Shown: piece by piece, positions 60 to 59,575 of the stretch | Position numbering within the stretch: position 1 is the stretch's first letter | How the letters are laid out: each line of letters starts with the position of its first letter | NCBI RefSeq assembly: GCF_900637655.1 | Contig: NZ_LR134384.1 | Coordinates: 2,604,001-2,668,000, forward strand | Direction: 5' to 3' | Length of the DNA: 64,000 nt | Source of the DNA: Segatella oris | Lineage (GTDB): Bacteria; Bacteroidota; Bacteroidia; Bacteroidales; Bacteroidaceae | Made by a program: the position numbers and the translations under genes | Notes under the pieces: generated by a model | What the model was told of the DNA's origin: nothing | Databases searched by the model: none | The model's input: only the letters and a program-made list of their open reading frames with translations

Positions 60-398
60 AAAGTTAAGCTTTCAAGGCTTTATCTCTCGCAAGAGAATAA
101 GAGTGAGGCCACGTTATGCCTCACATGATTTATCTTTACAAATGCTTTCGCAAGAAGACCCCTGTTCTAAAATAAAACATCGGCGGTCAGAAATACGCGA
201 GTTTTGAGCCACTTTAACAACCAACTGATTATCAAACGCTTATAGAAAACACAACACTTTATTCCACATTTCAACGTAAACAAAAGTTGTGATTTGCGTC
301 AAATCACATGGTCATCTGCGTCAAATGAGCATGCCAAGTGACTTGAAATACACGACAAGATGATGCAGATTACAGGCTGATTTGACGCAAAACAGGAA
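60..398 (+). repeat. Interspersed repeat copy R1 with 22-bp array
   Basis: Copy of the window-wide intergenic repeat. Five degenerate 22-bp units run from 289 to 398. Their six-base cores start at 295, 317, 339, 361 and 383 (TGCGTC, TGCGTC, TGACTT, TGATGC, TGACGC), exactly in register. The part before the array (about 130-240) resembles end module A of the other copies, including the string AAATACGCGAGTTTTGAG, but it is diverged. I see no gene in 1-628; 399-560 holds nothing I can name. Confidence 0.7.
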
Positions 399-562
399 CT
401 CAAGGAAAGGAAAAAGAGAAATCAAAGCCGTCAAGAAGAAGGAAAACTTGCTGTTTCTCATCTTCTTTTTCCTTAGATTGCAACTTTTAAAGTGCATGTT
501 TTTACACCAATTTTCTTTACATATCAGCTGTAATCTACTATCTCATTCCCCCTAAAGAAAAA

Positions 563-599
563 CGTCCGTATAAGCATATGAAGCATACTTACACGGACG
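563..599 (-). terminator. Rho-independent terminator of the 630-1268 gene
   Basis: Stem of 12 bases (563-574 with 588-599, one mismatch) followed on the minus strand by a run of T. It lies 30 bases after the stop of the lipoprotein gene. Confidence 0.7.
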
Positions 600-629
600 A
601 TTGGCGATATAAAGAGTTATGTGTTGGTG

Positions 630-1268
630 CTACTTGCGGGGCGACGGAGCTGGAGCCACACCGGTTTTTCCACGGAAAATAAAGCCCACATTACCTTTAA
701 GCTTGTTTTCTGACATGGCATCTACCTGCAAAGAGAGTGCTATAATCTGCATAGCTACAACCGACTTGACCTTTGAAAAGCCAAAGGAATAATTGCTGTT
801 CCCAGCAAAAGCGATACTGATTTTATGGCTTCCTTTATTATAATTGAGTTCAAATACGGCCGTTTTGGGGTTCAACAGAAAGCCTACCGGACTGAGATTA
901 TAATAGCCTGTGAAGCATGTGATGTCCTGATTTGGGGCTGATTTCAACGCTTCTTTCAGTGCATTGTCGTTCACATAATCGGCAAAAAGGCTCATCGGGA
1001 AGTTCTTTATGGTCAGCGTACTGTCGGTCAATATCTCCCATTTCACGTCAGACGAATCACTCACATACTTCTTGTCAGTGGCACTCCAACGCTGATAATA
1101 GGTCTTACCTGCATAAGATCCCCTCACTTGTTGATAGGCCTGCTGTTGCTGTTCACGGGTAAGACTGTTGTCATTGCCACCACCTGGTTCACAAGCAGTA
1201 AAGGTTAAACCGAGCACTGTCAGGCATCCTAACAGCCATAGATACATTTTGTTTGTTTTCTGTTCCAT
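630..1268 (-). CDS. Lipoprotein of unknown function
   Basis: 212 residues. The first 25 form a lipoprotein signal peptide (basic start, hydrophobic core, lipobox ending LTFTAC with Cys26), so the mature protein is probably a membrane-anchored lipoprotein. After it comes a Gly/Asn/Gln-rich linker and then a beta-rich body with no catalytic motif that I can see. It resembles small Bacteroidales lipoproteins of the DUF4840 kind, but this assignment is weak. It is divergent from the ECF sigma gene and ends just before a strong terminator, so it is probably a single-gene unit. Function unknown. Confidence 0.8.
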   Translation of the reverse strand: MEQKTNKMYLWLLGCLTVLGLTFTACEPGGGNDNSLTREQQQQAYQQVRGSYAGKTYYQRWSATDKKYVSDSSDVKWEILTDSTLTIKNFPMSLFADYVNDNALKEALKSAPNQDITCFTGYYNLSPVGFLLNPKTAVFELNYNKGSHKISIAFAGNSNYSFGFSKVKSVVAMQIIALSLQVDAMSENKLKGNVGFIFRGKTGVAPAPSPRK

Positions 1269-1382
1269 TTTATATAAGGTTTATTTTGGTTTATCTACCC
1301 CCTAAATGTCAATGAAGAAGAAAACTTGCCTGATATGACATTAAATAATTGTTAAAATCAAGAAATATAGGCAAGACTGTCT

Positions 1383-1390
1383 TAACTTTG
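1383..1390 (+). promoter_or_regulatory. Bacteroidota -7 box TAACTTTG for the sigma operon
   Basis: Matches TAnnTTTG. It lies about 90 bases before the start codon at 1481, which leaves a leader of about 85 bases. Confidence 0.55.
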
Positions 1391-5207: not shown

Positions 5208-5918
5208 TCACTCCTCTAATTTTAGTTTCTTATCTTTACCTTTCTTTATACTATGTCCTGCGAGTATGATTACAATCTCTCCTCGCGGATCTTTCTCTGT
5301 AAAATGGGCGATAACCTCCTGCAATGTGCCACGAACGTGCTCCTCATACAACTTGGAAATCTCTCGCGCTACACTCACTTGGCGGTCTTCTCCAAACACA
5401 TCGGCAAACTGTTGCAGTGTTTTCAGCAACCGATAGGGCGACTCATAGAACACCATTGTGCGCGTTTCGTCCTGCAAGGAGAGCAGATGTGTCTGCCGAC
5501 CTTTCTTCTGTGGCAGGAAACCTTCAAAGCAGAAGCGGTCGCAGGGAAGTCCCGAAGACACCAAAGCCGGCACGAATGCCGTTGCACCGGGCAGTGTCTG
5601 AACCGTTATTCCGGCATGAGCTGCCTCACGCGCAAGGTAGAAACCGGGGTCGCTTATACCCGGAGTGCCTGCGTCACTGACAAGAGCTATGGTCTGTCCT
5701 GCCTTCAAACGCTCCACGATTCCGGTAGCAGTGCCATGCTCATTGAATTTATGATGGGCCATCAAATGGTTCTTGATGTCGAAGTATTTGAACAGAATAC
5801 CCGACGTTCGCGTGTCTTCAGCCAACACCAAATCGGCCTCTTTCAACACCCGAATGGCGCGTAACGTCATGTCCTCCATATTGCCCACAGGAGTCGGCAC
5901 AATGTATAATGTTCCCAT
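5208..5918 (-). CDS. rsmI: 16S rRNA (cytidine(1402)-2'-O)-methyltransferase RsmI
   Basis: 236 residues from the ATG at 5918; a TTG two codons earlier is an unlikely start. The tetrapyrrole-methylase fold is clear: GTLYIVPTPVGN at the N-terminus, EADLVLAEDTRTSG, the SAM-binding stretch ALVSDAGTPGISDPG, and FEGFLPQKKGRQ. RsmI methylates the 2'-O of C1402 in 16S rRNA with SAM, which helps decoding fidelity. It is the first gene of an operon with the coiled-coil lipoprotein. The promoter box ends about ten bases before the ATG, so the transcript may be almost leaderless. Confidence 0.96.
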   Translation of the reverse strand: MGTLYIVPTPVGNMEDMTLRAIRVLKEADLVLAEDTRTSGILFKYFDIKNHLMAHHKFNEHGTATGIVERLKAGQTIALVSDAGTPGISDPGFYLAREAAHAGITVQTLPGATAFVPALVSSGLPCDRFCFEGFLPQKKGRQTHLLSLQDETRTMVFYESPYRLLKTLQQFADVFGEDRQVSVAREISKLYEEHVRGTLQEVIAHFTEKDPRGEIVIILAGHSIKKGKDKKLKLEE

Positions 5919-5936: not shown

Positions 5937-6141
5937 AACAATTATTCATGATATGCAAAATATCATGTAGTTTCTTTGCAATTTTTAAAACCTGAAATAA
6001 CAAGTGATAACATATGTTTCTTTTCATACGTCCTAACTAATAGCAGTTCCTCTGCACCATAATTCCATCCCTTTCAGGGCGATTTGGCATCACCCTTAAA
6101 TACAAAGTATTCTGCATAATGGCAGCAAACGAAAAATAGGT

Positions 6142-6508
6142 TAATATTTTTCAAGGATGTTTACAATAGTCCTCGCATAGTCAGCGTATTCTGAATGAGA
6201 AGCTTCCTCGCTTCAAATATGCGCTGTTTTTAAGCACTTCACAACACGCTGACTATCAAATTGTTATGAAATCAAAGGCAGAATATAAGATAAAATCACA
6301 CTGAAAAACCATGCAATTTGCGTCAAATCAGCCTGCAAACTGCCTCAAATTATCGCGCATTTTGAGTCAAACAGCGTTGTGATATGCGTCAAATTACAAC
6401 GCATCATGAATGAAATTGCACACAAAGAACTTTGAAAAAGCAAAATAACTCCTGTTTTCTCGTCTGTTTTTCTCTGTTTGGTAGTCTTCTGAAATGTTAA
6501 AAACCATA
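6142..6508 (+). repeat. Interspersed repeat copy R2 (A-array-C)
   Basis: Module A is at 6142-6240 (TTAATATTTTTCAAGGATG and a following CTCGCATA). Five 22-bp units follow at 6313-6422 with cores at 6319, 6341, 6363, 6385 and 6407 (TGCGTC, TGCCTC, TGAGTC, TGCGTC, TGAATG). Module C is at about 6466-6508 (TTTGGT, then AAATGTTAAAAA). The divergent intergenic region 5919-6848 holds no gene that I can support. One more isolated GCGTCAAAT lies near 6644. Confidence 0.8.
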
Positions 6509-12538: not shown

Positions 12539-12584
12539 ACAGGGAAACAGGAAATGATTTTGTTCAGTTTCTTTCCCTGTTTTT
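12539..12584 (+). terminator. Terminator of the 11637-12530 gene, merging with repeat R3
   Basis: Perfect 9-base stem ACAGGGAAA/TTTCCCTGT (12539-12547 with 12572-12580), then T5. The T-tract is the first part of module C of the adjacent repeat. Confidence 0.65.
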
Positions 12585-12978
12585 AACATCTCTACGGATC
12601 ACCAAATAGAAAAAGAAAGACCACTTTTTGTGACAAGCGCAACCATTTCTTAGCTTCGATGCCCTCGTTTTTATCTTCAAGTATTGCAATCTCTGTCACT
12701 TTAGCTCGCTATCTGCATCATTTCACCCTGCCAAGTGCCTGAAAACACCACGCATTTTGACGCAGATGACAAGCTGAAGTGACGCAGAAGGCGAGTATTT
12801 TCAATGTTGCCAAACACTTTAAAAAGCATCAAATTGGATAACATCTTGACTGTCAATACCTTACGAAGAGGCCTCAAAACTCGCGTATTCTGAGCGAGGA
12901 AAGGTTGTGTTTCGAATATGCCGGCTATGCGAAAGCAATTGTAAACATACTTGAAAAGAATTAACATATAATCCGCTT
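12579..12978 (-). repeat. Interspersed repeat copy R3 (C-array-A)
   Basis: Module C at 12579-12612 (TTTTTAACATCTC, then CACCAAATAG). 22-bp unit cores at 12714, 12736, 12758 and 12780 (TGCATC, TGCCTG, TGACGC, TGACGC), in exact register. Module A in reverse at about 12860-12978. It fills the convergent gap 12531-13062, where I see no gene. Confidence 0.8.
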
Positions 12979-18823: not shown

Positions 18824-19297
18824 GTTTTTAACACTTCGGGGGCACACCAAATAGGAATGAAGTTCTGCTTTCTGCATATGTTTCAAATCATCTGCGAGCT
18901 TCAATCATCCTGTTTTTATCTACTTAGGCTGCAATTCCAATCATCATGTGTTGCAATATGACGCAAAACACACTGCAAAATGACGCAAATAGTGTGGCAA
19001 CTTGACTCAAATTACACGCTAACTTGACTCAAATTACACGGTAACTTGACGCTAATTACACTGTAACTTGAGTCACTTTATATCGTAAAATGACTTTAGT
19101 TGTGCGGTTATTCAATACAAATTGCAACGCCATGTAAATGGGACCTTATCTTATATTATCCAGAATTGAGGTATCAGATGAATGGAGTTACATGTCAAGG
19201 GGATAGAAAAGAAGGCGTCAAGGCCATAAAATGGCTTTGCATTTGCACTAAAAACGGTTTTTCATTTCTATTTGGTGATGCTCGGAAATGTTAAAAA
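18824..19297. repeat. Interspersed repeat copy R4 (C-array-C, double-ended)
   Basis: Module C in the forward sense at 18824-18860 (GTTTTTAACACTTCGG and CACCAAATAG) and in reverse at 19261-19297 (ATTTCTATTTGGT and AAATGTTAAAAAA). Between them are seven units in perfect 22-bp register, cores at 18959, 18981, 19003, 19025, 19047, 19069 and 19091 (TGACGC, TGACGC, TGACTC, TGACTC, TGACGC, TGAGTC, TGACTT). 19079-19297 is an inverted match of 31931-32140 (copy R5). The stretch 18533-18823 and 19298-19460 holds no gene. Confidence 0.85.
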
Positions 19298-31930: not shown

Positions 31931-32395
31931 GTTTTTAACACTTCCGGGGCAGACCAAATAGAAATGAAAACCTGTCTTTACTGTCAGTATAAAGCCATTT
32001 TATGACCTTGACGTCCCTGTTTCTATCCCTTTGGCATGTAGCTCCATTCATCTGATACCTCAATTATGGATAATATAAAATAAGGTTCCATTTACATGGC
32101 GTTGCAATTTGTATTGAATAACCTCACAACTAAAGTCATTTTACACCGCTATTTGAGTCAGATTACATCGCAACTTGATGCATATTACGGGATAATTTGA
32201 CGTAAATCGCATGGCTTTTCAGCGTGATTTCATCTTACATTTTGCATGGAATTCTGCAGCATTCTGATAGTCAGCATTTTACAAAACGGCCTTAAAACTC
32301 GCAAATTTTGAATGGCAGTAAATCTTGTTTTGAATTTACCAGTGATGTAAGAGCAATTGTAAATATCCTTGATTAAATTTAACATATAATCTGCC
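31931..32395 (-). repeat. Interspersed repeat copy R5 (C-array-A)
   Basis: Module C at 31931-31968 (GTTTTTAACACTTCCGG, ACCAAATAGAAATGAA). A stretch 31970-32140 is the inverted match of 19079-19260. Unit cores at 32154, 32176 and 32198 (TGAGTC, TGATGC, TGACGT) in 22-bp register. Module A in reverse at about 32290-32395 (ending near TTTAACATATAATCTG). It fills most of the convergent gap 31806-32637; no gene is seen there. Confidence 0.82.
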
Positions 32396-39038: not shown

Positions 39039-39803
39039 GTAAAAAAACACAGAAACAAATGCCTTTTTGACAGGAAAGATAAAAAGAACAGTCCGCCATC
39101 ATCAGTTGGGTTTTCTTGCTGTTCCTCCTTACTTCCGACATATCCTTACCTGTTTTGGCAGTGAATTCAAGCAGGTAAATATCATCAGGACGATTGGACT
39201 GTATTTGTACTGAACTGAAACTATCTCCAAAAATCAAACGGGAAACAACCGAATACCATTGGTGTACAAAGAACTTTACAGTGCAAACGGATTATAAGTT
39301 AAATCTTATCAAGGAACTTTACAAATGTTCTCGCATAGCTCGCATATTTGAAATGAAAGACTATCCCGCTCCAAATACGGGCTGTATTTTGGCAATCCAT
39401 AACGCATTGGTTATCAGAATTTTGCAAAAATCAACACAAAATAAAGACTAAAATAACATTGAAATTCCATGCAATCTACGTCAAATCGTCTCACCATCAG
39501 ACTTAAATCACAGCACTTTTTGAGGTAAATAGCAGCATCAAACACCTTAGTTCAGGATAAGCAATTGAAACTATTCAAAAGCAAAGATTTATCCCCAATT
39601 CGTGTAATCCATATCTGTTTGCATAATCATTTGACATTGATTATTCTGCTTTTTGACTCAAATCACCATGCAACTTGCGTCACTTTACGCCGTAAAATGA
39701 CTCAAATAAGCATGCGTTCTATACCCTGTCGTGTAGTAATCTCCACCCTATTGTTTCATCATAATGACCATGTGGCAAGATAAGAGGCGAGAGGTGGGAG
39801 GGC

Positions 39804-40040
39804 AACTCTGTACGAGTTGTGCTTTTGAAAGCCTCACGTCGGCGAGCGAAGTGAGCCTACGTGGGGATAAAATGGACGTATGAAATGAACCCGGAACGGG
39901 TTCAGCTTTTTCGTATCCGCCACGTAATTGGAAGAAGCAAAACCCGTACCGGGTTTGAAAACCACGCGTTATCATTCCCACGAGGTAGGCTCGTTCCTCG
40001 CCAACCACGGGCTTTCAAAAGCATAACTGCTACGCAGTTA
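39804..40040. repeat. Cluster of compact palindromes, left copy
   Basis: AACTC-TGTAC-GAGTT (39804-39818), TGAACCCG-GAA-CGGGTTCA (39886-39904), AAACCCG-TAC-CGGGTTT (39940-39956) and TAACTGC-TAC-GCAGTTA (40024-40040). All are perfect stems; three have 3-base loops. The same set occurs in the right copy. Confidence 0.85.
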
Positions 40041-40306
40041 CTACATGAGAAATGTCTCATCGCATAACACAATATCCGTTGTCACTCATAGGAACGAAAG
40101 TCGGGATAGCCCAGCATGGCACTCATCGCACGACACAATATCCATTGTCATCATATAATAACAGGTAGTTTATAGAACAATATATACCCAATCATGTGAC
40201 AATCTCTATTAAATCGTGTGGCAACTTGACGCTAATTACGCTGTAACTTGACGCTAATTAGCGTGTAACTTGAGTCACTTTATATCGTAAAATGACTTTA
40301 GTTGTG

Positions 40307-49975: not shown

Positions 49976-50000
49976 TGTCTTGAGTCCTTTCTGTTTAGGT

Positions 50001-51755
50001 TTATAGTTTCCATGCCACCGACTTTTGGTATTCGTTCCACATCCTATAATATAATGTGGCTTGCTCCATGAGCTGTTGGTGGGTGCCCTGTTCGGCTATT
50101 CTGCCCTTGTCCACCACGACAATGTTGTCGGCATCTTGCACGGTGGTCAGTCGGTGGGCTATCATGAGCACAGTCTTTCCGCAAGTAAGGTGGGCAAAGG
50201 CTTTCCTGATAAGGTGCTCGTTTTCAGGGTCGGCAAAGGCAGTAGCCTCGTCGAGCACCACGATGGGAGCATCTTTCAGAATAGCACGAGCAAGCACTAT
50301 GCGCTGCTGTTCGCCACCGGAGAGGTATGTTCCCTCTGCTCCTATCACAGTGTTCAGTCCCTGTGGCTGCCGCTCGATGATTTCCCGACTCTGCGAGAGG
50401 TCTATGGCGTGGTTCACCTGCTCGATGGTTGCATCGGGATTGCCGTAGCGTATGTTCTCTAAGATGGAGGTCTTGAACAGTCGGGTGTTCTGAAATACGA
50501 ACGACACATTGCGCATCAACGTTGCCTTATCCATGTGTCGAACGTCCATACCTCCTATTTTCAAAATGCCTTCGCGCACATCCCAGAAGCGTGGAATGAG
50601 CCTTGCGATGGTTGTCTTGCCGCTTCCAGATGCTCCCACCAGCGCAACGATCTTGCCTTGTGGTATGTCAAGGTCGATGTGGCTTACGGCATCGTGCTCC
50701 GCCGCTTCGTATCGGAACGACACATTGTGCAGGCTGACATCGAAGGTTCCCACTTTATTGGGCTCGGAACTTTCAGGAAGCGGCGGTGTGGCGGTGAGTT
50801 TCTCCAATCGATCTACTGCTTCGTTTGCCAGAAAAAGGTTCTGACTGAGGTGCATGGCTTTCATCACGTTGGCTGCAATGATGGGTGCGATGAGCACATA
50901 CAGTACCATATCGGAAACTATGATGGTAGTTTCGCCGCCGTGCCCTATCAGTATGATGCCCATTGGTACAAGCAGAAAAGCGAAAGCATTGATAACTATG
51001 GTGTAGGTAGACATGGGGGTACGCCACAGAAGGGTGTACCTGATGACAAGGTCGCGGTAGTTGATGATGCTATCGTGAAAGCGTTTGAATGAGAATACCG
51101 TCTGTTGGAAAACCTTCACGACGGGTATTCCGCGCACGTATTCTACGGCTTCAGCACTCATTTTCTCTTGTGCGTCGAGGTACATACGCTGGAAATCGTT
51201 GTTCTTTGGGTTCATCATGTAGCCCATGATGCCGAAGGCGCACACTATCGGTACCATTGCGGCAATGCCCAACTGCCAGTCTACGGCAAGCAGAAGAACT
51301 ATAATGCCTATCGGAGCCACCACGCTACCTGCCACATCGGGCAGTATGTGTGCTACGAAAGTGTGGGTCTGACTCGAATCTTCATCTATTATCTTGCGCA
51401 TGCACCCCGTGTTCTGCGTGTCGAAAAAGCCCAACGGAATACGCATCAGCCGTTCCATTGCAGTGCGCCGCATATTGGTTTCGATGCGGAAAGCGGAAAG
51501 ATGTGAGAGCATGAGGGCGGAAAAATAGAGCAAAATATTCGCCACTGACACTGCGAACGCCGCAATGGCATAGTCCCATACGGGCGTATTGGCAAGGTTT
51601 CCATCGGCAGTGAGCAGCGTGCGCACTACCAACCATAGGAAAATAAAGGGTACGAGCGACAGCAGTCCGTTCACTGCCGACAGCACAACCGAGCAGGGCA
51701 GCAATGGCTTGCGCCCTCCCATGTAACGTCCTAAGCGTTTCAGTATTTTTATCAT
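50001..51755 (-). CDS. ABC exporter half-transporter 1
   Basis: 584 residues: six-helix membrane domain (about 15-310) and ATPase with Walker A GASGSGKTTIARL, signature LSGGEQQRIVLARAIL and Walker B IVVLDEATAFADPENE. The D-loop reads FADPENE instead of the common SLD/SVD form, as in one half of heterodimeric exporters such as the YbtP/IrtA kind. It is the first transporter gene after the TetR regulator (32-base gap). Export direction is inferred from the fused membrane-ATPase architecture. Confidence 0.93.
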   Translation of the reverse strand: MIKILKRLGRYMGGRKPLLPCSVVLSAVNGLLSLVPFIFLWLVVRTLLTADGNLANTPVWDYAIAAFAVSVANILLYFSALMLSHLSAFRIETNMRRTAMERLMRIPLGFFDTQNTGCMRKIIDEDSSQTHTFVAHILPDVAGSVVAPIGIIVLLLAVDWQLGIAAMVPIVCAFGIMGYMMNPKNNDFQRMYLDAQEKMSAEAVEYVRGIPVVKVFQQTVFSFKRFHDSIINYRDLVIRYTLLWRTPMSTYTIVINAFAFLLVPMGIILIGHGGETTIIVSDMVLYVLIAPIIAANVMKAMHLSQNLFLANEAVDRLEKLTATPPLPESSEPNKVGTFDVSLHNVSFRYEAAEHDAVSHIDLDIPQGKIVALVGASGSGKTTIARLIPRFWDVREGILKIGGMDVRHMDKATLMRNVSFVFQNTRLFKTSILENIRYGNPDATIEQVNHAIDLSQSREIIERQPQGLNTVIGAEGTYLSGGEQQRIVLARAILKDAPIVVLDEATAFADPENEHLIRKAFAHLTCGKTVLMIAHRLTTVQDADNIVVVDKGRIAEQGTHQQLMEQATLYYRMWNEYQKSVAWKL

Positions 51756-51787
51756 CTTCTTCTATATATGTTAAAAGGTTATTGTTC

Positions 51788-52402
51788 CTACGGTTTCATC
51801 AGCTCTCTCCACCCTGCCATACTGTAAGCGGCATACTGCTCGAGTGCACGGTTCACCTCGCTTTCGTCGTAGTCCTCGTGCTCCACAAGTTCGCAGAAGA
51901 TGTTCACCCACATAGAACTCGCAATGTGCAGGAAGAAGGGCGAGATGTCAATGTTGATGTGCGGATAGCGCGCTTTCATCAGTCGCAGGTATTCCGAACC
52001 AACTTTCATTTGGTGCTTAACTATCCTTTCCTTGTACCCAGTAAGCGATGTGCCCTCGGCATTGAACAGCAACAGCCGAAGCTCGGGGCGGTAAAGCCTC
52101 ACCATTCGTTTCATTGCGCCGATGTATTCGTTCTGGAAATCGAGTGCGTCGAACACCTCGATGCTTAGGTGCCGCTCTTCGTTGTGCGACAGAATGTAGC
52201 GGTTCAGCTCGTTGAGCAGCGGCCGCAGCACCTCACAGAACAGCTCGTCCTTGCTGCGGAAGTAGTTGTATACGTTGCCAGCAGCAATGCCCGCACGCCG
52301 CGCCACTGTGCGGATAGACGTGCTGCGTGCGCCGTGAGCGATGAACTCCTCTCGCGCCACGGCAACGATACGCAGCCGAATGTCGTCTTTCAGTTTCTGC
52401 AT
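51788..52402 (-). CDS. TetR/AcrR family regulator of the export cluster
   Basis: 204 residues. N-terminal HTH: REEFIAHGARSTSIRTVARR followed by AGIAAGNVYNYFRSKDELF, the TetR signature. The C-terminal domain is helical and diverse, as for ligand binding. It is first in the minus-strand cluster, and a palindrome lies in front of its start (52427-52447), so self-repression with release by a compound that the exporters move is likely. Confidence 0.92.
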   Translation of the reverse strand: MQKLKDDIRLRIVAVAREEFIAHGARSTSIRTVARRAGIAAGNVYNYFRSKDELFCEVLRPLLNELNRYILSHNEERHLSIEVFDALDFQNEYIGAMKRMVRLYRPELRLLLFNAEGTSLTGYKERIVKHQMKVGSEYLRLMKARYPHINIDISPFFLHIASSMWVNIFCELVEHEDYDESEVNRALEQYAAYSMAGWRELMKP

Positions 52403-52426
52403 ACCCCCATGAAAACTTTAAATAAT

Positions 52427-52447
52427 GAACAAAGTTCTGTTTTGTTC
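52427..52447 (-). promoter_or_regulatory. Candidate TetR operator
   Basis: Perfect inverted repeat GAACAAA/TTTGTTC (52427-52433 with 52441-52447), 25 bases upstream of the regulator start. Size and place fit a TetR operator. Confidence 0.5.
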
Positions 52448-52449
52448 AT

Positions 52450-52486
52450 AAAAAAATCGCACCGTTTCGTAATCGAACGGTGCGAT
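52450..52486 (-). terminator. Terminator between the HTH genes and the TetR operon
   Basis: 11-base stem ATCGCACCGTT/AACGGTGCGAT (52456-52466 with 52476-52486), with a run of T on the minus strand (52450-52456). It would insulate the cargo from transcripts of the HTH pair. Confidence 0.7.
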
Positions 52487-52598
52487 AGATTGAACGAACC
52501 CATTTGCGCTCTTACTATATAAATATTGTGTATTCGCATAGTTGCAATGTTTATTTTGCAAAAGTAGTAAAGATATAAAAACACTGCAATACCCCAAA

Positions 52599-52624
52599 AT
52601 AAGTATTTTGCAATAAATACTTAT
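52599..52624. other. A/T-rich perfect inverted repeat
   Basis: ATAAGTATTT/AAATACTTAT (52599-52608 with 52615-52624). It lies between the HTH genes and the cargo; possible binding site or hairpin. The rest of 52487-52714 holds nothing I can name. Confidence 0.4.
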
Positions 52625-52714
52625 GTGTGTTGAATATCTAAATTTATTTTATAAGTCAAACAACATATTGTGGAATAGAATATGAAGAGTTTCAGTTATA
52701 CAAAATCAATCCCC

Positions 52715-53005
52715 TCACTTGTAATTCTCCTCCAACATTCTCTCCAAGTCCGAAGCCTTGTAGAGTATCTTTCCTGCAAACTGCGTGTAGGGGATAATCT
52801 TCCTGTCTCGGTAGTCCTGCAAGGTACGGGGACTGATATACAGCCGCTCGCACACTTCCTTACCCGTGAGGAAAAGTTCGCCAGCAAAGAGTGGTTTGTG
52901 CGTCTGTGCTACTTCCACAATCCGTTTCCCCACACCTCTCAATGCCGAGACGACCAGCTGCATCTCGTCCGTCTCCATGTTCAAGTCTCTTGCTGTTTCC
53001 ATCAT
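52715..53005 (-). CDS. Helix-turn-helix protein (excisionase/DUF3853-like)
   Basis: 96 residues. The C-terminal half is a MerR-like winged HTH: LTGKEVCERLYISPRTLQDY followed by RDRKIIPYTQFAGKILYKAS. Such small proteins are common in Bacteroidales integrative elements, where they act as excisionase or regulatory factors. Its start overlaps the stop of a similar upstream HTH gene (ATGA at 53002-53005), so the pair was translated together; the upstream partner is now broken. Confidence 0.85.
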   Translation of the reverse strand: MMETARDLNMETDEMQLVVSALRGVGKRIVEVAQTHKPLFAGELFLTGKEVCERLYISPRTLQDYRDRKIIPYTQFAGKILYKASDLERMLEENYK

Positions 53006-53292
53006 ATCTGTCTGTTTTTAGATTTGTTCGACTTCGTAAGAAGAAGTGCTTCCACATCCTCGCGCTTGTAATAGCACTTGTGTCCGATTTGCGTAAACGG
53101 CAGCACACCCGTATCACGATAATGCTGCAAGGTGCGTTTGCTGATATTCAGCAGCTGGCACACATCGCCGTTGTGCAGTCAGTCCGTGTGCTTGCTTTTC
53201 TCTCCGAATGCCTTGTGGCAGCATTCCGCAAGGCTCAAGATTTCATCCCGAAGCTTTGCCCAATTGGTTTCCGTAATGATGTAATAGTTCAT
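53002..53292 (-). pseudogene. Helix-turn-helix protein, in-frame TGA
   Basis: 97 codons from the ATG at 53292. MNYYIITETNWAKLRDEIL at the start, then a TGA at 53179-53181 (codon 38, where relatives usually have Trp in a W-L-x-N-x-x-V-C pattern), then VCQLLNISKRTLQHYRDTG and YYKREDVEALL. A TGG to TGA change would explain it. The part after the stop has the complete HTH but no good start. Confidence 0.75.
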
Positions 53293-53316
53293 AATCATAT
53301 TTTGTTATTGTTTATT

Positions 53317-53341
53317 GTTTGTTGTTTGTTGTTTGTTGTTT
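53317..53341 (-). repeat. Heptamer tandem repeat upstream of the HTH pair
   Basis: GTTTGTT repeated about 3.5 times (53317-53341), 25 bases upstream of the HTH start at 53292. Length changes could alter the promoter spacing. Confidence 0.6.
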
Positions 53342-53859
53342 CAGGTCCTTCCTGTTTCCATCGGCAAAGGTAATGGCGTACGTACGCCTCTCAAAGCCGT
53401 GGGGAACAGCAGGGAATTATCGGGAAGAATAAGAAAAAGAGCAATCCGTTCCGTCGGTTCGCATTTGCGTTTTCCTGCCCCGTCTTTTTTCTTTCATTGC
53501 AAAATTAATATTGGGCATTTCTTATTCCATCCCTTTTCATTCAAGTGGCAGCTTGTGGAGTCGTAATGGAATAGGTTGGCACAGTAATCCGATATAAATA
53601 TGCTCCAGTCAATAGTTTGTAGATAGTTGGAGCAAAAGACTGCATCTGAAAGCAAACAACGACATCCACATTTCCTGCTTACTCTTCGTTCGTACTATCC
53701 GTTTTTTTCTTAATGAGACGATAAATGCTCTTCTTGACTACCTATCTCCCTAAGAAATTTAAAGCGGACGAGTGCAACATTATGCAAGAAGGCTCTGAAT
53801 ACTTGGAAGTTACGCATTCCCACTCTAACTTCACTCTTGGAAATCAATTCAAGGGAATA
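53342..53859. other. Non-coding stretch of the island
   Basis: No gene is supported. It has a 14-base perfect palindrome GGCGTACGTACGCC at 53375-53388. An in-frame extension of the next gene back to 53725 exists but lacks family similarity. Confidence 0.5.
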
Positions 53860-54909
53860 ATGAAAAAGAAAGCAGATGCAGGCAATATAGACAGCAGGAG
53901 AAATCTTCATCGAAAGAGGAGTCCCTCCAAGAACGCAGAGATAGAAAACTATCTCTCCACACACTACGAGTTCAGATACAATACAGTATTGGGTAGAACC
54001 GAATATTGCAGTAAGGGTAATAATCGTTTTGTAAAAATCGGTCGCTATGAAATCAATACGTTTCGCAGGGAACTTGATTGCGATGAAAGCATAGCGACTT
54101 CTGCCGAGAACCTTTATTCCATCATCGAGAGCAGTTTCTCTCCCCGTATCAATCCCGTGCAGGAGTATTTCAAAGAGTTGCCACTGATAGATATAGGCGA
54201 TGGTAGTAGTAATGGTAGTAGTTACAGTGGTAGTAGTGTTCCTATTTCCTTTTCACCAAAAGCAATTCCCAATTTGGCAAGTTGCGTGGTCGTCCGTAAT
54301 TCTAACAAGTGGTTGCCGTATCTTACCAAGTGGCTTGTGGCGGTGGTCGCCAACGCAATTGACGACCGCGAGTGCCGTAACCATACCTGTCTTGTACTGA
54401 CAGGTGAGCAGGGTAAGTTCAAGACAACGTTTCTCGATTTACTTTGTCCACCCAAACTGCACGGTTACAGCTATACGGGCAAGATATATCCACAAGAGAA
54501 GGACATACTCACTTATATCGGTCAGAACCTTATCGTAAATATAGATGACCAACTCAAAGCCCTCAATAAGCGGAATGAGAACGAGCTGAAAAACCTCATC
54601 ACCTGTCCGATGGTCAAGTACCGTATGCCGTATGACAAGTACGTGGAGGAGTATCCCCACTTGGCAAGCTTCGTGGCATCAGTGAACGGCAATGACTTTC
54701 TTACAGACCCGACAGGCAGCAGAAGGTTTCTGCCCTTTGAAGTTCTATCCATAGACGTAGAGAAAGCCAAGCGTATGGGCGAAGCCTTGAAGAAAGCAGG
54801 ATACATAAAGGTGAGCAAACGAAGAAACGGTGGTAGCCCCATCTATGTCTACAAGATTAGGAAAATCCTACCCTGCCCGCTCCTTCAAACTTGTAGTAAC
54901 CAAATGTAG
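53860..54909 (+). CDS. VapE/VirE-type (primase-helicase related) protein with internal deletion
   Basis: 349 residues from the ATG at 53860 (a start at 53725 is possible). Family features: EIENYLSTHYEFRYNTVLGR, EYFKELPLI, the P-loop-like LTGEQGKFKTTFLDLLCP, IVNIDDQLKALNKRNENELK and the SVNGNDFLTDPTGSRRFLPF motif. After FEVLSIDVEKAK the sequence jumps directly to RMGEALKKAGYIKVSKR, which in full-length relatives is the C-terminus; about 100 or more residues seem to be missing in frame. Glycine/serine repeats (SNGSSYSGSS) lie near residue 115. Likely role: replication or control of the element; function is probably impaired. Confidence 0.75.
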   Translation: MKKKADAGNIDSRRNLHRKRSPSKNAEIENYLSTHYEFRYNTVLGRTEYCSKGNNRFVKIGRYEINTFRRELDCDESIATSAENLYSIIESSFSPRINPVQEYFKELPLIDIGDGSSNGSSYSGSSVPISFSPKAIPNLASCVVVRNSNKWLPYLTKWLVAVVANAIDDRECRNHTCLVLTGEQGKFKTTFLDLLCPPKLHGYSYTGKIYPQEKDILTYIGQNLIVNIDDQLKALNKRNENELKNLITCPMVKYRMPYDKYVEEYPHLASFVASVNGNDFLTDPTGSRRFLPFEVLSIDVEKAKRMGEALKKAGYIKVSKRRNGGSPIYVYKIRKILPCPLLQTCSNQM

Positions 54910-55089
54910 TAGAATGTGTAGTATTGTCTTATACTACAAAGTAATACTGATTATCAATCACTTATCACAAAATAATATGTAGTAAGAAGAAAGATGAAAA
55001 AGTTTGGAGGGGAAAACTTTGGAAACGGTAAAACCATAAAACAGACAAGCATAAATAATTATCATTCAACTCATTAAAGTATCAAAACA

Positions 55090-56057
55090 ATGAAAGAAAA
55101 AGATTTATCAGCTATCAAGCAATATTCCATCGTGGAATATCTCGAAAAGAAAGGCATCAAGCCTGCCCGCAAAACACCAACCTATGCTGTGTATCGCTCA
55201 CCATTGAGGGAAGAAGTGCATCCGAGTTTCAAGGTGGACAGGGAAAAGAACCTTTGGATAGACTATGCCGAAGGCAGGGGTGGAAGTATCATCGACCTTT
55301 GTATGCGCTTGGAAGGCTGCACGCTCTTGGAAGCCATCTGCCGTTTGGGGCAGAACGCTTCAGAGTATATAGTGCCCAGCTCCAGCTCTCCAAAGAGAGA
55401 AACATCCATCAGCCCAAAGCAAACAGAAAATACAATGGCAAGCGGTACAAGGAGACTGATAAGCATATCAGAGACCTTGCCACCACATTTACAGGAATAT
55501 CTTATCAAGGAATGTTGCATCAATTTGGAAAAGGCAATACCCTTTCTCAAATGTATCAGCTATGAGGTAAGGGGAAGAAGACATGAAACCATCGGCTTTG
55601 CCAATTCTTCGGGTAGTTATGAACTTCGGGACAACAAAATATTCAAAGGAACGATTGTCCCCAAAGACATCACTCCGATATTTGAGGACAGGGCAAACCC
55701 GTCTGTCTGTTTGAAGGCTTTATGGACTTTCTCTCTTTTCTTTCAATGAAAGGGGAAGTAACCAACCAATGTCTCGTGATGAATTCTGTGAGTAATGTAG
55801 CAAGAAGTATTCACTACCTGAACAAAAGAAATATAACCTCTGTTCGTGCTTTTCTTGATAATGACGATACAGGGCGAAAAGCAGTACAGGAATTTGTAAA
55901 CGCAGGTTTTAAGGTAGAAGATATGGCTGTGTATTATAAAGACTTCAAAGACCTCAACGAGTATCATGTCAGCCGTGTCCGTGAGCAACAGAAAGAGTTA
56001 GAGAAAACTCCCAATACAAGCAACAAAAGAAAACAAGTCAGACTTAAAATAAGATAG
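55090..56057 (+). pseudogene. Toprim/CHC2-type primase of the element, frameshifted
   Basis: N-terminal part (55090 to about 55710) resembles the zinc-binding primase domain: AIKQYSIVEYLEKKGIKPAR and SFKVDREKNLWIDYAEGRGG. The Toprim part (about 55701-56057) is in another frame: VCLFEGFMDFLSFL, SVRAFLDNDDTGRKAVQEF. The frames cross around 55701-55712 within a GTCTGTCTGT repeat, a likely slippage site. The full protein would have about 322 residues. It would help replicate the excised element. Confidence 0.8.
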
Positions 56058-56061
56058 AGGT

Positions 56062-56523
56062 ATGGAAAAGAAAGCAGTCAGCAAAGAGGAAATGGAAAAT
56101 ACCATCAGGAAATCTTTCAGTATGAGCCAAGCTGAAAGTTCAAGTGAACAAACCGTAGCTGAATTTCGAGCAAAGGGAATGAAAAATATTCAAGAGCAAA
56201 AACAACAAGAAACAGAACATGCCATAAAATATGTTACGCCAGCCGAGCCTGCACAGCATACAGAGAACACAACCGTTCAAAGACGCATCAGTGCCAAGAT
56301 GAGAAAAGAGACACTCGACGCATACAAGTAGGCGTTCCTTGTTCCAACAAAGCTATATGAGAGAAAGGCGGTTTACCTGAGCAGGGAGACACAGGAATAT
56401 GCAGACTTCATCGTACGCTGGTTGGGTGACAAGAGTTCCAACCTCTCAAGCTTTGTGGAAAATATCATCCGCACACATTTGGATGAATATGGTGAGGACA
56501 TAGAGAAATGGAGAAAACTGTGA
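56062..56523 (+). pseudogene. DUF3408 protein, in-frame TAG
   Basis: 153 codons. N-terminal half polar and Gln/Glu-rich; a TAG at 56329-56331 interrupts, and the same frame continues with LVPTKLYERKAVYLSRETQE and FVENIIRTHLDEYGEDIEKW, the conserved part of the family. DUF3408 proteins are common next to the mob genes of Bacteroides elements. The start lies 4 bases after the primase stop. Confidence 0.8.
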
Positions 56524-56589
56524 ACCGTAATAAAAAGGTCGAGGGTTTAGGGAAAAAGGAACGCCTCTTCACTCAAAAACCTTCGACAC

Positions 56590-56942
56590 TTTTCAGAGAG
56601 TAAGACAACGAACTTTTGCTAAAAATACTGAATGGTGGAACGCCACGAACGCTGTTAGATACTGAATGCATAACATCCGCTTTTCTACTACAAAACGCTT
56701 TATGCGTAAACGGTCTGTTAGGTAGCATTGCAAGACGTCAGTTTGTACCCACAAACAGCGTTTGCTCCCCTTGCTAAGTTATCGGGGAGATTAGACCGTA
56801 ATCACTCTGTTCTCATCGGTCAGTGTCCAGAAATTAAGCAATAATAAATCATCTGCAATGATTAACTTTCAAAGAAACTTATATGGACAGATATAACAGA
56901 AAGACTGCCAAGTGACAGCAACGAGGTAAGGAAGAAGTGAGG
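56590..56942 (+). other. Candidate origin of transfer region
   Basis: A non-coding stretch just upstream of mobC-relaxase, with hairpins GTTTGT-ACCC-ACAAAC (56741-56756) and CTCCCC/GGGGAG (56765-56770 with 56784-56789). The place and hairpins fit an oriT; the nick site cannot be given. Confidence 0.4.
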
Positions 56943-57311
56943 ATGAATAAGACGGAGTTCATCAAGATAAGGTGTACCTTAGAAGAAAAGCAGCTTATCA
57001 AGTCGAAGTCGGAAAGTACAGGGCGGAAGTTCTCAGACTACTGCCGTGAGATACTCCTGAATGATGAGGTAATTGCCGTCCCTAAGATGACCGACAATGA
57101 AAGGGAAGCCATCGAACTACTCAGACGAACGACCTACTTCTTACATATTTCCAATCTTATCAAGGTAAAGGATGATGCATGGGTACTGATTACCCAAAGT
57201 CTTTCTTATCTGGCAAGGGAGGCATTTAAGCGTTTCTTCAATCCCAAATACCACATTGAGGAAAGGGTAATTAAACTCTTAAATCTAATGGAGAATGATA
57301 GGAAAATGTAG
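56943..57311 (+). CDS. MobC-like mobilization protein
   Basis: 122 residues from the ATG at 56943 (a GTG two codons earlier is possible). Ribbon-helix-helix-like N-terminus (FIKIRCTLEEKQLIKSKSES, GRKFSDYCREILLND) as in plasmid MobC proteins, which bind oriT and help the relaxase. The 3' end overlaps the relaxase gene by 17 bases. Intact. Confidence 0.85.
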   Translation: MNKTEFIKIRCTLEEKQLIKSKSESTGRKFSDYCREILLNDEVIAVPKMTDNEREAIELLRRTTYFLHISNLIKVKDDAWVLITQSLSYLAREAFKRFFNPKYHIEERVIKLLNLMENDRKM

Positions 57312-58344
57312 AGCAATTGCGCATGGCAGCAATGCGCTGGAATATATTTTCAGAGAGGGCAAGCTTAGTAGTCGACTTGCCTTACATAATCTTTGCAGCA
57401 GAGAACCGAAGGCTATCTACGAGGAAATGAAGATGGTCAGCGGTTATAACAGTCGTTGCAGGAATAAGTTCCTGCGTATCGAAATCGGTATTGCACCTCA
57501 AGATGAGAAAAAGCTGCCTGTGTCAGAACTCATGCGGATAGCTCATCTGTTTGCCAAACAAATGGGACTTGACAACCACCAATGGGTGGCAGTAACACAC
57601 AAGGACACCGATAACAGGCATATCCATATCATTGCCAACCGCATCAGCCTTTACGGAGAGGTCTATGATACCACCTTTGTGAACAATAGGGCAGCAAGAG
57701 TGGCAGAGGAACTCAGTCGTAAGTATGGCATGACCATCACAAAGGAGGTCAAGGCGAAAAAGAAACATCAGAATGCAAATGCCAATCCAACAAGAGAGCA
57801 AACCAAACAAAAAGTACAGCAAATTTGTTATACCCTACTCAACCAATACAAAGGCACAGGCATCGCTGGGCATTCTATATTTCTCTATGAATTGAGCAGG
57901 AATAGCATTGGTATTGAGCGTATGAAGAACAAATAGGACAAGGTCTATGGCTTGAAGTTCTCATACGAAGGAATGACTTTCAAGGCTTCCGAAATCGGTA
58001 GGGAGTTTGGCTATCATTCCTTGCAGAAAAACTTTGAATCAACTAGCAAAGAAAAAGCAAAGAAACCTAACCAAATAATACAGAAGGCAACAGAAAAGAG
58101 CGAACAACCTGATACAGGTTATCAACTTGTTCCCAAGAGCCGTTCTTCTATCTCACGAGACAGTGATACCTTACAAGCGAAGAATCTAATCAGTGAAGTG
58201 GCTGACACTACCATAAGCGCAGCTGACGAATTAGTGGAAGGATTAGGCGATTTGATTACACCATCTGCGCATAGCGATGACTATATCGAAGTTGCATGGC
58301 AACGCAAGCTGAGAAACCAAGCAAACAGAAAGAAGCGAGGATGA
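57295..58344 (+). pseudogene. Relaxase (MobB/BmgA-like), in-frame TAG
   Basis: 349 codons. The N-terminal catalytic part is intact: MIGKCRAIAHGSNALEYIF, a likely Tyr near codon 17, and the metal-binding HKDTDNRHIHIIANR (three His). TAG at 57934-57936 stops the frame after 213 codons; the same frame continues to 58344 with GLKFSYEGMTFKASEIGRE and a basic end. A truncated but possibly active relaxase domain could still be made. Confidence 0.85.
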
Positions 58345-58425
58345 GGTATGTAATTCCATTCCAACTACGAATAGCATTAGAAAAGTGCAGAAAGAAGAAT
58401 ATCTCATTAAAAACGCTTGTTATTC

Positions 58426-58549
58426 GGTAACAAAGTATTATCTTTGCAGACAGAATAACAAGCGTTCTTTGTTAGGCAGAAAACAGCGAAGCCAAGTAGC
58501 TTGCTCGTTTCCAAATCGTTACCAGTTTAGTTATACCAATAAGGTAACT
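58426..58549. other. Right-end GGTAAC/GTTACC cluster with candidate attachment core
   Basis: GGTAAC at 58426, GTTACC at 58518, GGTAAC at 58543; AGGTAACT (58542-58549) repeats the left core directly. No gene is supported in 58345-58590. Confidence 0.5.
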
Positions 58550-58584
58550 TCTTTATTTTCAAATAGATACATTGTAATAATTAT

Positions 58585-59575
58585 CTTAGCGTGTAATTTG
58601 AGTCAAGTTACAGCCTAATTTGAGTCAAGTTGCCACACGATTTAATAGAGATTGTCACATGATTGGGTATATATTGTTCTATAAAACTACCTGTTATTAT
58701 ATGATGACAATGGATATTGTGTCGTGCGATGAGTGCCATGCTGGGCTATCCCGACTTTCGTTCCTATGAGTGACAACGGATATTGTGTTATGCGATGAGA
58801 CATTTCTCATGTAGTAACTGCGTAGCAGTTATGCTTTTGAAAGCCCGTGGTTGGCGAGGAACGAGCCTACCTCGTGGAAGTGATAACGCGTGGTTTTCAA
58901 ACCCGGTACGGGTTTTGCTTCTTCCAATTACGTGGCGGATACGAAAAAGCTGAACCCGTTCCGGGTTCATTTCATACGTCCATTTTATCCCCACGTAGGC
59001 TCACTTCGCTCGCCGACGTGGGGCTTTCAAAAGCACAACTCGTACCGAGTTGCCCTCCCACCTCTCGCCTGTTATCTTGCCACATGGTCATTACGATGAA
59101 ACAATAGGGTGGAGATTACCACACGACAGGGTATAGAACGCATGCTTATTTGAGTCATTTTACGACGTAAAGTGACGCAAGTTGCATGGTGATTTGAGTC
59201 AAAAAGCAGAGTAATCTATGTCAAATGATTATGCAAACAGATATGGATTACACGAATTGGGGATAAATCTTTGCTTTTGAATAGTTTCAATTGCTTATCC
59301 CGAACAAAGGTGTTTGATGCTGCTATTTGCCTCAAAAAGCGCAGTGATTTAAGTCTGACGGTGAGATGATTTGACGTAGATTGCATGGAATTTCAGTGTT
59401 ATTTTAGTCTTTATTTTGTATTGATTTTTGCAATATCCTGATAGCCAATGCGTTATGAACTGCCAAAATACAGCCCGTATTTGGAGCGAGATAGTCTTTC
59501 ATTTCAAATACGCGAGCTATGTAAAGACCGTTGTAAACATTGCTGACAAATATTAACACATTATTCGTTTATAGG
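58585..59575 (-). repeat. Interspersed repeat copy R7, right flank of the island (inverted partner of R6)
   Basis: Arrays with cores at 58599 and 58621 (TGAGTC twice); at 59151, 59173, 59195 and 59217 (TGAGTC, TGACGC, TGAGTC, TATGTC); and at 59328, 59350 and 59372 (TGCCTC, TAAGTC, TGACGT), all in 22-bp register. Module A in reverse at about 59450-59575. The palindrome module lies at about 58630-59130. No gene is supported. Confidence 0.9.
58815..59051. repeat. Cluster of compact palindromes, right copy
   Basis: TAACTGC-GTA-GCAGTTA (58815-58831), AAACCCG-GTA-CGGGTTT (58899-58915), TGAACCCG-TTC-CGGGTTCA (58951-58969), AACTCG-TAC-CGAGTT (59037-59051), and a larger CCCCACGT/ACGTGGGG hairpin at about 58990-59024. 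These mirror the left copy. Confidence 0.85.

What the first reader, a model, noticed from the sequence alone, without database searches (positions are those of the whole stretch)
289..59377. Interspersed intergenic repeat with arrays of degenerate 22-bp units in exact register
Seven copies occur in 64 kb (60-398, 6142-6508, 12579-12978, 18824-19297, 31931-32395, 39294-40315, 58585-59575). Each carries runs of a core like TGA(C/G)(G/T)C or TGCGTC, most often followed by AAAT, whose start positions step by exactly 22 bases: for example 18959, 18981, 19003, 19025, 19047, 19069, 19091, and 6319, 6341, 6363, 6385, 6407. I counted 11 arrays and over 40 units, none out of register within an array. 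The units are diverged in sequence but not in spacing. 22 bp is about two helical turns, so a protein bound to each unit would sit on nearly one face of the DNA, as with iterons or operator arrays. No reading frame explains them. I do not recognise the family. A protein-binding array (nucleoid organisation, replication or segregation) or a non-autonomous mobile repeat are the two main ideas.
Basis: seen in the sequence. Interest (0 to 1): 0.85.

Follow-up and report, generated by a model that had tools for sequence, protein, structure and literature searches.

The report
Regularly spaced 22-bp palindrome arrays, Prevotella
Between the genes of this Prevotella-type bacterium lie roughly three hundred short DNA arrays, each usually of four or five 22-base palindromic units in strict register and seldom within 4,000 bases of one another; several related species carry arrays of the same geometry with different letters, which suggests docking sites for an unknown DNA-organising protein.

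Summary
In 1.24 Mb of this 3.17-Mb chromosome I find 124 arrays (about 317 extrapolated), usually of 4 or 5 units, period exactly 22 bp (280 unit triples at 22; none at 12 other periods). Each unit is a 19-bp quasi-palindrome plus a 3-bp linker. Symmetric positions do not co-vary as hairpin pairs would; each position has its own substitution rule, and arrays tend to be inverted about their middle. That looks like protein assembling on double-stranded DNA. Of 81 elements examined, none overlaps a called gene; 42 carry a leader and/or tail, 39 are bare. Arrays avoid each other: 7 of 95 intervals are under 4 kb against about 25 expected, and 6 of the 7 lie inside compound elements. Several genus members carry 22-bp arrays of different sequence. 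One such repeat matches the published P. intermedia repeat PINSR (188 bp, beside a tryptophanase-type gene), whose 22-bp make-up the passages I read do not mention. At two loci tested, positions are not conserved. Best explanation: phased binding-site arrays of an unidentified oligomeric protein, probably chromosome-organising. Main rival: relics of a non-autonomous mobile element with target immunity. No protein was identified.

The parts
125..241 (-). tail (T) of copy 1; the leader is not recognised
   Evidence: profile hit, 52 bits
289..395 (.). array, 5 x 22 bp
   Evidence: unit profile chain; cores 295, 317
6128..6266 (-). tail (T) of copy 2, with an imperfect palindrome of the type CTCGCGTATTTG..CAAATACGCGAG
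   Evidence: profile hit, 105.5 bits
6313..6419 (.). array, 5 x 22 bp
6420..6504 (-). leader (L) of copy 2 (inner border approximate)
12579..12645 (+). leader (L) of copy 3 (inner border approximate)
12686..12792 (.). array, 5 x 22 bp
12839..12977 (+). tail (T) of copy 3
   Evidence: 116 bits, best hit
18824..18890 (+). leader of copy 4, left end (inner border approximate)
18931..19125 (.). array, 9 unit positions, the longest seen
19231..19297 (-). second leader of copy 4, inverted (inner border approximate)
31931..31997 (+). leader of copy 5 (inner border approximate)
32104..32210 (.). array, 5 x 22 bp
32260..32394 (+). tail of copy 5
   Evidence: 90.7 bits
39286..39423 (-). tail of copy 6
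   Evidence: 106 bits
39471..39533 (.). array, 3 units (copy 6)
39648..39710 (.). array, 3 units (copy 6)
39760..40190 (.). inserted block with REP-like palindromes (TGTACGAGTTG, GAACCCGGAACGGGTTC), resembling the surroundings of a Y1-transposase gene of this genome (borders approximate)
40221..40305 (.). array, 4 units (copy 6)
58593..58633 (.). array, 2 units (copy 7)
58690..59130 (.). the same block, inverted (copy 7; borders approximate)
59145..59229 (.). array, 4 units (copy 7)
59322..59384 (.). array, 3 units (copy 7)
59432..59569 (+). tail of copy 7
   Evidence: 103 bits

Best explanation
The 22-bp arrays are compact clusters of binding sites for an unidentified, oligomeric, sequence-specific DNA-binding protein. 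One dimer would bind each 19-bp quasi-palindrome; a 3-bp linker places successive dimers 22 bp (about two helical turns) apart, and four to five dimers would close into one nucleoprotein body with mirror-image ends. About 300 such bodies, about one per 10 kb and rarely nearer than 4 kb to each other, would act as chromosome-organising or insulating points rather than as operators of single genes. In about half of the copies the array sits inside an older, possibly once mobile, leader-tail cassette. SHOWN: geometry, copy number in the held sequence, intergenic placement, nearly fixed unit number, absence of hairpin-type covariation, position-specific degeneracy, array-level inversion, spacing exclusion, and 22-bp arrays of different sequence in other genus members. 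INFERRED: that a protein binds, that it oligomerises, and that its role is chromosome organisation.
For: Period exactly 22. 4 or 5 units in 72 of 82 arrays and 103 of 124 in the larger set. In 380 units, eight symmetric pairs match no more often than with half-units shuffled (z -2.2 to +2.2) and the innermost less often (z -9.3); the dyad across 298 linkers gives z -1.5 to +1.5. Substitution rules differ by position: positions 1 and 17 deviate from consensus by transitions in 157 of 158 and 131 of 132 cases; positions 3, 15, 8 and 10 in only 5 of 51, 9 of 63, 11 of 146 and 8 of 148. Purine-pyrimidine steps are nearly absent at positions 4-5 (12 or 13 of 760 half-sites). Of 103 arrays of 4-5 units, end units point < and > in 55, the reverse in 1. 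Units of one array exceed units of other arrays by at most 1.1 of 19 matching positions, and same-index units of tail-bearing elements match at 11.1 against about 10.6 for other indices, so the arrays are not slippage-homogenised or recent copies of one master. Spacing: 7 of 95 intervals under 4 kb against a mean of 24.6-27.4 (range 16-39, 500 draws per weighting). No significant preference among tandem, convergent and divergent gene pairs (chi-square p 0.29).
Against: No protein is identified and no candidate was tested. At the two loci examined, positions are not conserved: downstream of the FtsW-like gene a strong array is found in 1 of 11 other genomes, upstream of thymidine kinase in 1 of 11, odd for an essential organiser. 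Of ten sampled genus genomes G186 shows no 22-bp peak and G023 only a tie. In G028, which shares the tail, 22 was the best period in only 2 of 9 loci and 21 in 4. The spacing rule could come from transposition immunity, and the intergenic list behind its null is crude (16 of 124 arrays fall outside it). Direct similarity within arrays is small but not nil (z up to 3.9). Several symmetric columns hardly vary, so they say little about pairing. The tail palindrome and the direct TTTGTAAAGAT motif look like remains of a mobile element.
Confidence: 0.5

Rival explanations
1. Relics of a non-autonomous mobile element (MITE-like) whose transposase bound the 22-bp sites. Target immunity kept new insertions several kb from old ones, and the elements are now old and diverged.
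For: Leader and tail are recognisably related between copies (42 tails and 32 leaders in 864 kb). Outer edges share TTTGTAAAGAT in direct orientation; with up to one mismatch it occurs 42 times near arrays and 47 times elsewhere, a 12.5-fold higher density. In three loci of G014 and G108, TTTTGTCAAGATAATTCA-like direct repeats flank the element (by eye). Families are lineage-specific and positions differ between species. An exclusion distance is what target immunity would leave. From memory only: Mu and Tn7 ends consist of about 22-bp transposase sites.
Against: 39 of 81 elements are bare arrays. Old copies: the best long genomic match to copy 3 is 76% over 272 bp; only the copy 6/7 pair is near-identical. 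From each leader to the next co-oriented tail the distance is 192-285 bp in 29 of 31 cases and about 13 kb, unrelated neighbours, in 2, so no copy with room for a transposase gene. No target duplication or terminal inverted repeat was seen by eye. Position-specific substitution rules in old copies imply continuing constraint. Mu/Tn7 end sites, as recalled, are not palindromic.
Confidence: 0.25
2. REP/BIME-type extragenic palindromes mobilised by a REP-associated Y1 transposase (RAYT).
For: Short palindromes in intergenic clusters, lineage-specific, hundreds of copies. G000 has 3 Y1_Tnp matches, one a fragment with a stop; all three adjoin arrays, those at 624 and 669 kb on both sides. The REP survey PMC3733652 reports CGTC-tagged repeats also in Bacteroidetes (passage read), and TGCGTCA contains CGTC.
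Against: No Y1_Tnp match in G107, G309 or G128, which have arrays (G309 and G128 are drafts, 96% and 82% complete). In G084 and G092 the Y1 gene sits among other repeats (CCCTGAAAGGG type), with no lag-22 signal in 5.5 and 5.0 kb around it. No compensatory stem changes. CGTC is internal here, not an end tag; no 3'-end preference, whereas that survey places REPs mainly downstream of coding regions (abstract).
Confidence: 0.09
3. Operators of a global transcription regulator: each array controls the neighbouring genes.
For: Palindromic, phased, intergenic sites; 24 of 104 array-bearing regions are divergent.
Against: 27 of 104 are convergent, with no promoter expected; proportions are like those of array-free regions (100 tandem, 33 convergent, 32 divergent). 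Positions are not conserved at the two orthologous loci tested. The exclusion distance is not expected of operators.
Confidence: 0.1
4. A structured RNA element (chains of hairpins) acting in transcripts, for example as terminator or processing signal.
For: Units and tail are quasi-palindromic; the one 411-nt copy folded does better than all 100 shuffles on both strands (z about -2.7).
Against: No covariation in unit, linker or tail dyads; no Rfam match in the window at gathering threshold except a tRNA; no orientation preference to genes; similar fold strength on both strands.
Confidence: 0.05

Closest known systems
[quoted passage not shown] abstract, section 3.4, PCR method section and found passages read; figures and supplements not)
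   Same: 188 bp, intergenic, 177-184 copies, no coding sequence, no terminal inverted repeats, lineage-specific.
   Different: The window's family is bare (mostly 85-113 bp) or 353-399 bp with leader and tail, with other unit sequences; my G000 leader and tail profiles find nothing in 140 kb of G107. G107 is unnamed, its tryptophanase match is below the curated cut-off, and 17 in 140 kb is denser than about 180 per genome. The read passages do not mention 22-bp units, geometry or spacing.
BrickBuilt MITE of Porphyromonas gingivalis (PMC4596501; abstract and sections on identification, homology (part 1 of 2), structure and locations read)
   Same: Intergenic, leader + short tandem unit + tail, no coding sequence.
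   Different: 23-nt unit, 1 to 22.8 copies, 19 elements, IS5-like TIR; here 22 bp, usually 4-5 units, about 317 arrays, and the BrickBuilt TIR is not enriched near arrays (6 in 106 kb against 114 in 1,134 kb, up to 2 mismatches).
REP/BIME elements with RAYT transposases (PMC3733652; abstract, section on CGTC families and found passages read)
   Same: Short extragenic palindromes in clusters, high copy, often species-specific.
   Different: Strict 22-bp register, no terminal tag, no compensatory pairing, no consistent RAYT partner across species.
Plasmid iterons and phased operator arrays (recalled, not searched)
   Same: 19 bp + 3 bp = 22-bp phasing, four to five sites per array.
   Different: Hundreds of arrays on a chromosome; units quasi-palindromic and arrays inverted about their middle, not simple direct repeats.

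Membership tests
PINSR | intergenic repeat of about 188 bp, about 180 copies | tested here: not met
   window family: 35 of 39 bare arrays 85-113 bp, 28 of 29 complete elements 353-399 bp, about 317 arrays extrapolated; the G107 repeat does fit the length
PINSR | sequence match to the PINSR-like repeat of G107 | tested here: not met
   G000 leader and tail profiles: 0 hits in 140 kb of G107; blastn of three window copies: none at E 0.01. The published consensus itself was not available
PINSR | copy downstream of tnaA | tested here: inconclusive
   met in G107 for a tryptophanase-family match below the curated cut-off; G000 has no match in that search
BrickBuilt MITE | 23-nt minisatellite unit, variable copy number | tested here: not met
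   period 22; 4-5 units in 103 of 124 arrays
BrickBuilt MITE | IS5-like TIR GAGACCTTTGCA | tested here: not met
   no enrichment near arrays
MITE in general | terminal inverted repeats and target-site duplication | tested here: inconclusive
   edge listing shows a shared direct motif TTTGTAAAGAT; no inverted ends or duplication seen by eye, no formal test
REP/BIME with RAYT | hairpin with compensatory stem changes | tested here: not met
REP/BIME with RAYT | associated Y1 transposase gene | tested here: inconclusive
   3 of 3 matches adjoin arrays in G000; no match in G107, G309, G128; not beside arrays in G084, G092
CRISPR | near-identical repeats separated by unique spacers, with cas genes | tested here: not met
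   units degenerate, only 3-bp linkers; cas genes not searched
chromosome-organising protein-site arrays | a protein that binds the site | not tested
   no candidate was searched for; needs bench work

The most novel reading that the evidence does not exclude
A genus-level chromosome-organising system in Prevotella: hundreds of four-to-five-site nucleoprotein anchors of constant geometry (19 + 3 = 22 bp, mirror-symmetric as a whole), kept more than about 4 kb apart, whose DNA-binding specificity has been replaced again and again between species while spacing, symmetry and site number were kept.
Probability: 0.35. Interest if true: 0.92.

Novelty: new variant of a known kind. Interest (0 to 1): 0.77.

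Why it matters
Bacteroidota chromosomes have few well-characterised sequence-specific organising sites (my general knowledge, one paper search only). Here is a directly testable one: hundreds of discrete arrays with a simple geometric rule, an exclusion distance that random placement does not give, and fast turnover of sequence between species. It also gives the unexplained PINSR repeat, which its authors suggest for species identification, an internal architecture and a wider family. If it is a mobile relic instead, it would be a striking genomic footprint of target immunity.

Tried and rejected
Minisatellite expansion by slippage: rejected as the main process; units of one array exceed units of other arrays by at most 1.1 of 19 positions (z up to 3.9) and unit number is nearly fixed. 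RNA hairpins: rejected as the main explanation, no covariation in unit, linker or tail dyads. RAYT/REP: taken seriously because the Y1 genes adjoin arrays in G000; not general. On checking, all three G000 Y1 loci proved to adjoin arrays, so I raised that rival from 0.07 to 0.09. Promoter/UTR element: no orientation preference. Viral spread: 0 contigs with the strict tail hairpin, 1 with the strict G000 unit pair (L308, not followed up), 0 with the G107 unit pair in viral contigs; strict patterns miss degenerate copies. Other families of the order: no lag-22 signal in 61 kb from six genomes, one giving only 1.3 kb; too little to conclude. Named tail-bearing contigs (47 kb): lag 22 once, tied with lag 14. 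An early lag spectrum counted masked N runs; redone without them. A script failed while writing a file and was rerun; a first tail-arm count used a wrong register and was redone. Literature: searches found PINSR and BrickBuilt but no description of 22-bp palindrome arrays in Prevotella; the library holds only open-licence papers. PMC5771137 was seen as passages only.


Full report
WHAT WAS CHECKED. In the window, cores of the type TGASKCA/TGCGTCA pair at 22, 44 and 66 bp (11, 6 and 4 pairs) and at no other distance from 8 to 69; 100 simulated windows gave no pair at 22. A unit profile built from 344 units in 864 kb (40 spaced 20-kb stretches, denser in the first 1.16 Mb, plus the window) reads G-Y-A-A-N-N-T-G-A-S-K-C-A-N-N-T-T-R-C followed by three loosely constrained bases: a 19-bp quasi-palindrome plus a 3-bp linker. 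In 1.24 Mb of the 3.17-Mb single contig the profile gives 124 arrays, 280 consecutive unit triples at period 22 and none at 12 other periods. That extrapolates to about 317 arrays, assuming the held parts are typical. Density is 11.5, 6.8 and 10.2 per 100 kb in the arcs 0-1.17, 1.17-2.56 and 2.56-3.17 Mb.

ANATOMY. Arrays hold 4 or 5 units in 72 of 82 cases and in 103 of 124. In the 864-kb sample 81 elements were assembled from units, leaders and tails: none overlaps a called gene by more than 40 bp; 42 carry a leader and/or tail and 39 are bare. Of 29 complete ones 15 are 374-380 bp and 8 are 396-399 bp long, one unit apart. The tail is about 137 bp and contains an imperfect palindrome CTCGCGTATTTG..CAAATACGCGAG. 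The outer edges of leader and tail share TTTGTAAAGAT in direct orientation; with up to one mismatch it occurs 42 times near arrays and 47 times in the rest of the 1.24 Mb, a 12.5-fold higher density.

WHY PROTEIN RATHER THAN HAIRPIN. If units were selected as stems, symmetric positions should change together. They do not: z-scores against shuffled half-units lie between -2.2 and +2.2 for eight symmetric pairs and at -9.3 for the innermost one, whose commonest combinations are A-G, C-T and A-T. The dyad across the linker gives -1.5 to +1.5 in 298 junctions. In 41 tails the palindrome is in register (60% matched pairs against 14-34% when slid) but shows no clear covariation (z -2.0 to +2.1). Some columns hardly vary and say little. 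Instead each column has its own rule: positions 1 and 17 deviate almost only by transitions (157 of 158; 131 of 132), while 3, 15, 8 and 10 deviate mostly by transversions. Positions 4-5 avoid purine-pyrimidine steps (12 or 13 of 760 half-sites). Simple decay from one master copy would not do this. Arrays also tend to be inverted as a whole: of 103 arrays of 4-5 units the end units point < and > in 55, the opposite way in 1, the same way in 40, and are undecided in 7. Outward half-sites are more often TGC, inward ones TGA. Units of one array resemble each other little more than units of other arrays (0 to 1.1 of 19 positions more, z up to 3.9), and units at the same index of different tail-bearing elements little more than at other indices (11.1 against about 10.6 of 19, 35 oriented elements). 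So these look like old arrays that kept a motif, not fresh copies and not slippage products.

SPACING. Consecutive arrays in the held blocks are separated by 95 intervals. Seven are under 4 kb. Six of these lie inside compound elements that I set aside after seeing them: four in window copies 6 and 7, and two where a block lies between arrays at 668 and 978 kb; the seventh is 3.3 kb. The next smallest is 4.2 kb. Redistributing the arrays over intergenic regions of at least 200 bp gives a mean of 24.6-27.4 intervals under 4 kb, range 16-39 (500 draws per weighting). In the two contiguous blocks (200 and 420 kb) the mean interval is 8.8 and 9.6 kb, with 0 of 22 and 4 of 42 under 4 kb, the four being those of copies 6 and 7. 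A further close pair lies outside these blocks, either side of the Y1 gene at 624 kb. Caveats: the gene calls behind this null are crude longest-ORF calls, and 16 of 124 arrays fall outside the listed regions. Main-family arrays in G107 (10 intervals, smallest 3.8 kb) and G084 (4 intervals, smallest 8.7 kb) agree but are few. Two of seven array-free gaps over 15 kb were looked into and hold integrase genes (window 40.6-58.3 kb; 2.699-2.741 Mb), which recalls the remark in PMC4755523 that most strain-specific mobile regions lack PINSR.

RELATIVES. With this species' core and one mismatch, pairs at 22 bp stand far above control in G000 (291 forward, 250 reverse against 2 and 3); the 59 other genomes are near control, with modest excess in G055 (13/10 against 3/1), G031 (11/9 against 2/2) and G037 (7/7 against 1/4). 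In 299 genomes of the genus (G000 included) at zero mismatches, clear excess appears in G000 (87/86) and six others: G092 (49/49), G128 (27/17), G309 (21/15), G108 (7/14), G164 (8/5, control 3/3; its places were not listed) and G248 (6/6). Bases flanking the core differ between G092, G128 and G309. The tail is found well in G014 and G028 (15 matches each) and weakly, once each, in G004, G017 and G022, of 59 other genomes; by a strict hairpin pattern it is in named Hoylesella timonensis and Prevotella MAG contigs (7 stretches). In G014, 22 was the best period in 5 of 9 tail-linked loci, with units of a different core, CAWTG; in G028 it was best in only 2 of 9, and 21 in 4. Without any motif, self-similarity of non-coding DNA at lags 12-40 peaks uniquely at 22 in 8 of 10 genus genomes (G000 35, G107 20, G084 12, G010 4, G407 4, G374 3, G068 3, G309 2; next lag at most 4 in G000 and 1 in the rest); G023 ties at 1 and G186 shows none against 5 at lags 18, 27 and 36. 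Unit sequences read: G107 GCAAAA..TTTTGC, G084 GCAAATTGGGCGAAATTGC, G374 CTAAAAGTTGAACTTTTGG, G010 GTAAAAGGTAAGCTTTTGT. Most share an outer frame close to GYAA..TTRC. The lag-22 places in G068, G407 and G023 do not look like clear palindrome arrays. G107, G084, G374, G407, G186, G068, G010 and G023 were chosen for contiguity or tryptophanase, not for arrays; G309 was chosen for arrays.

PUBLISHED RELATIVE. G107's repeat fits PINSR of P. intermedia (PMC4755523, section 3.4 read): its consensus of 17 copies is 188 bp from end motif to end motif (the paper says 188 bp), one copy lies about 0.24 kb downstream of a tryptophanase-family gene (the match is below the family's curated cut-off, as for all 54 matching genomes), and the genome has two contigs of chromosome size. 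G107 carries no name, so this is an inference; its density is higher than 180 copies per genome would give (17 in 140 kb). The 22-bp architecture is not mentioned in the passages I read; the figure with the consensus was not available.

POSITIONS. At the two window loci tested, array positions are not shared: downstream of the FtsW-like gene a strong array is present in G107 only (1 of 11, with a weak hint in G407), upstream of thymidine kinase in G092 only (1 of 11) (no null was run for these scores). Families have therefore probably turned over or spread independently. That is the strongest point against an essential fixed organiser and for a mobile past.

JUDGEMENT. The geometry, the independent column rules, the mirror-symmetric ends and the exclusion distance fit a multi-dimer protein body on DNA best; the old leader-tail cassette and the direct edge motif keep a mobile origin open, and the two are compatible (a mobile cassette that carries, or was kept for, binding sites). 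No protein was identified, so function rests on inference. Interest is high because the rule is simple, found in several species of the genus, and testable.

Noticed in passing
window 40602-58344: An integrated mobilisable element: tyrosine-integrase parts (40602-40985 arm domain, 40922-41836 catalytic, in overlapping separate ORFs), VapE-like protein (53725-54909), MobA/VirD2-like relaxase (57295-57936), with MMPL and ABC exporters between. My profile finds no array in it.
   Followed up: partly
window 39285-40260 and 58594-59570: A 977-bp inverted repeat, 94.8% identical, flanks the mobilisable element; it could let the 18-kb segment invert.
   Followed up: partly
G000 610881-611222, 624154-624495, 669038-669235; L253; L255: Y1 (RAYT-like) transposase genes: at 611 kb in G000 with palindromes of the type CTCGGTACGAG, in G084 and G092 with CCCTGAAAGGG-type repeats. 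In G000 the genes at 624 and 669 kb have 22-bp arrays on both sides, the one at 611 kb on one side.
   Followed up: partly
L152 (G128) and L169 (G108), next to the TGACGCA arrays: Further tandem families that also look like 22-bp units with other palindromes (TTGACTTAAGTCAA; ACTACATTAATAATGTAGT) in the same intergenic regions (read by eye).
   Followed up: no
L219, L220, L223 (G107): A second 22-bp array family in the genome with the PINSR-like repeat, unit TTTACACGTAAAT.
   Followed up: no
L308 (IMGVR_UViG_3300032308_001277, 5421-5449): One viral contig with the strict G000 unit pair, a pattern that matches on both strands.
   Followed up: no
G186 stretches L244-L247: Non-coding self-similarity peaks at lags 18, 27 and 36 (a 9-bp period) instead of 22.
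   Followed up: no
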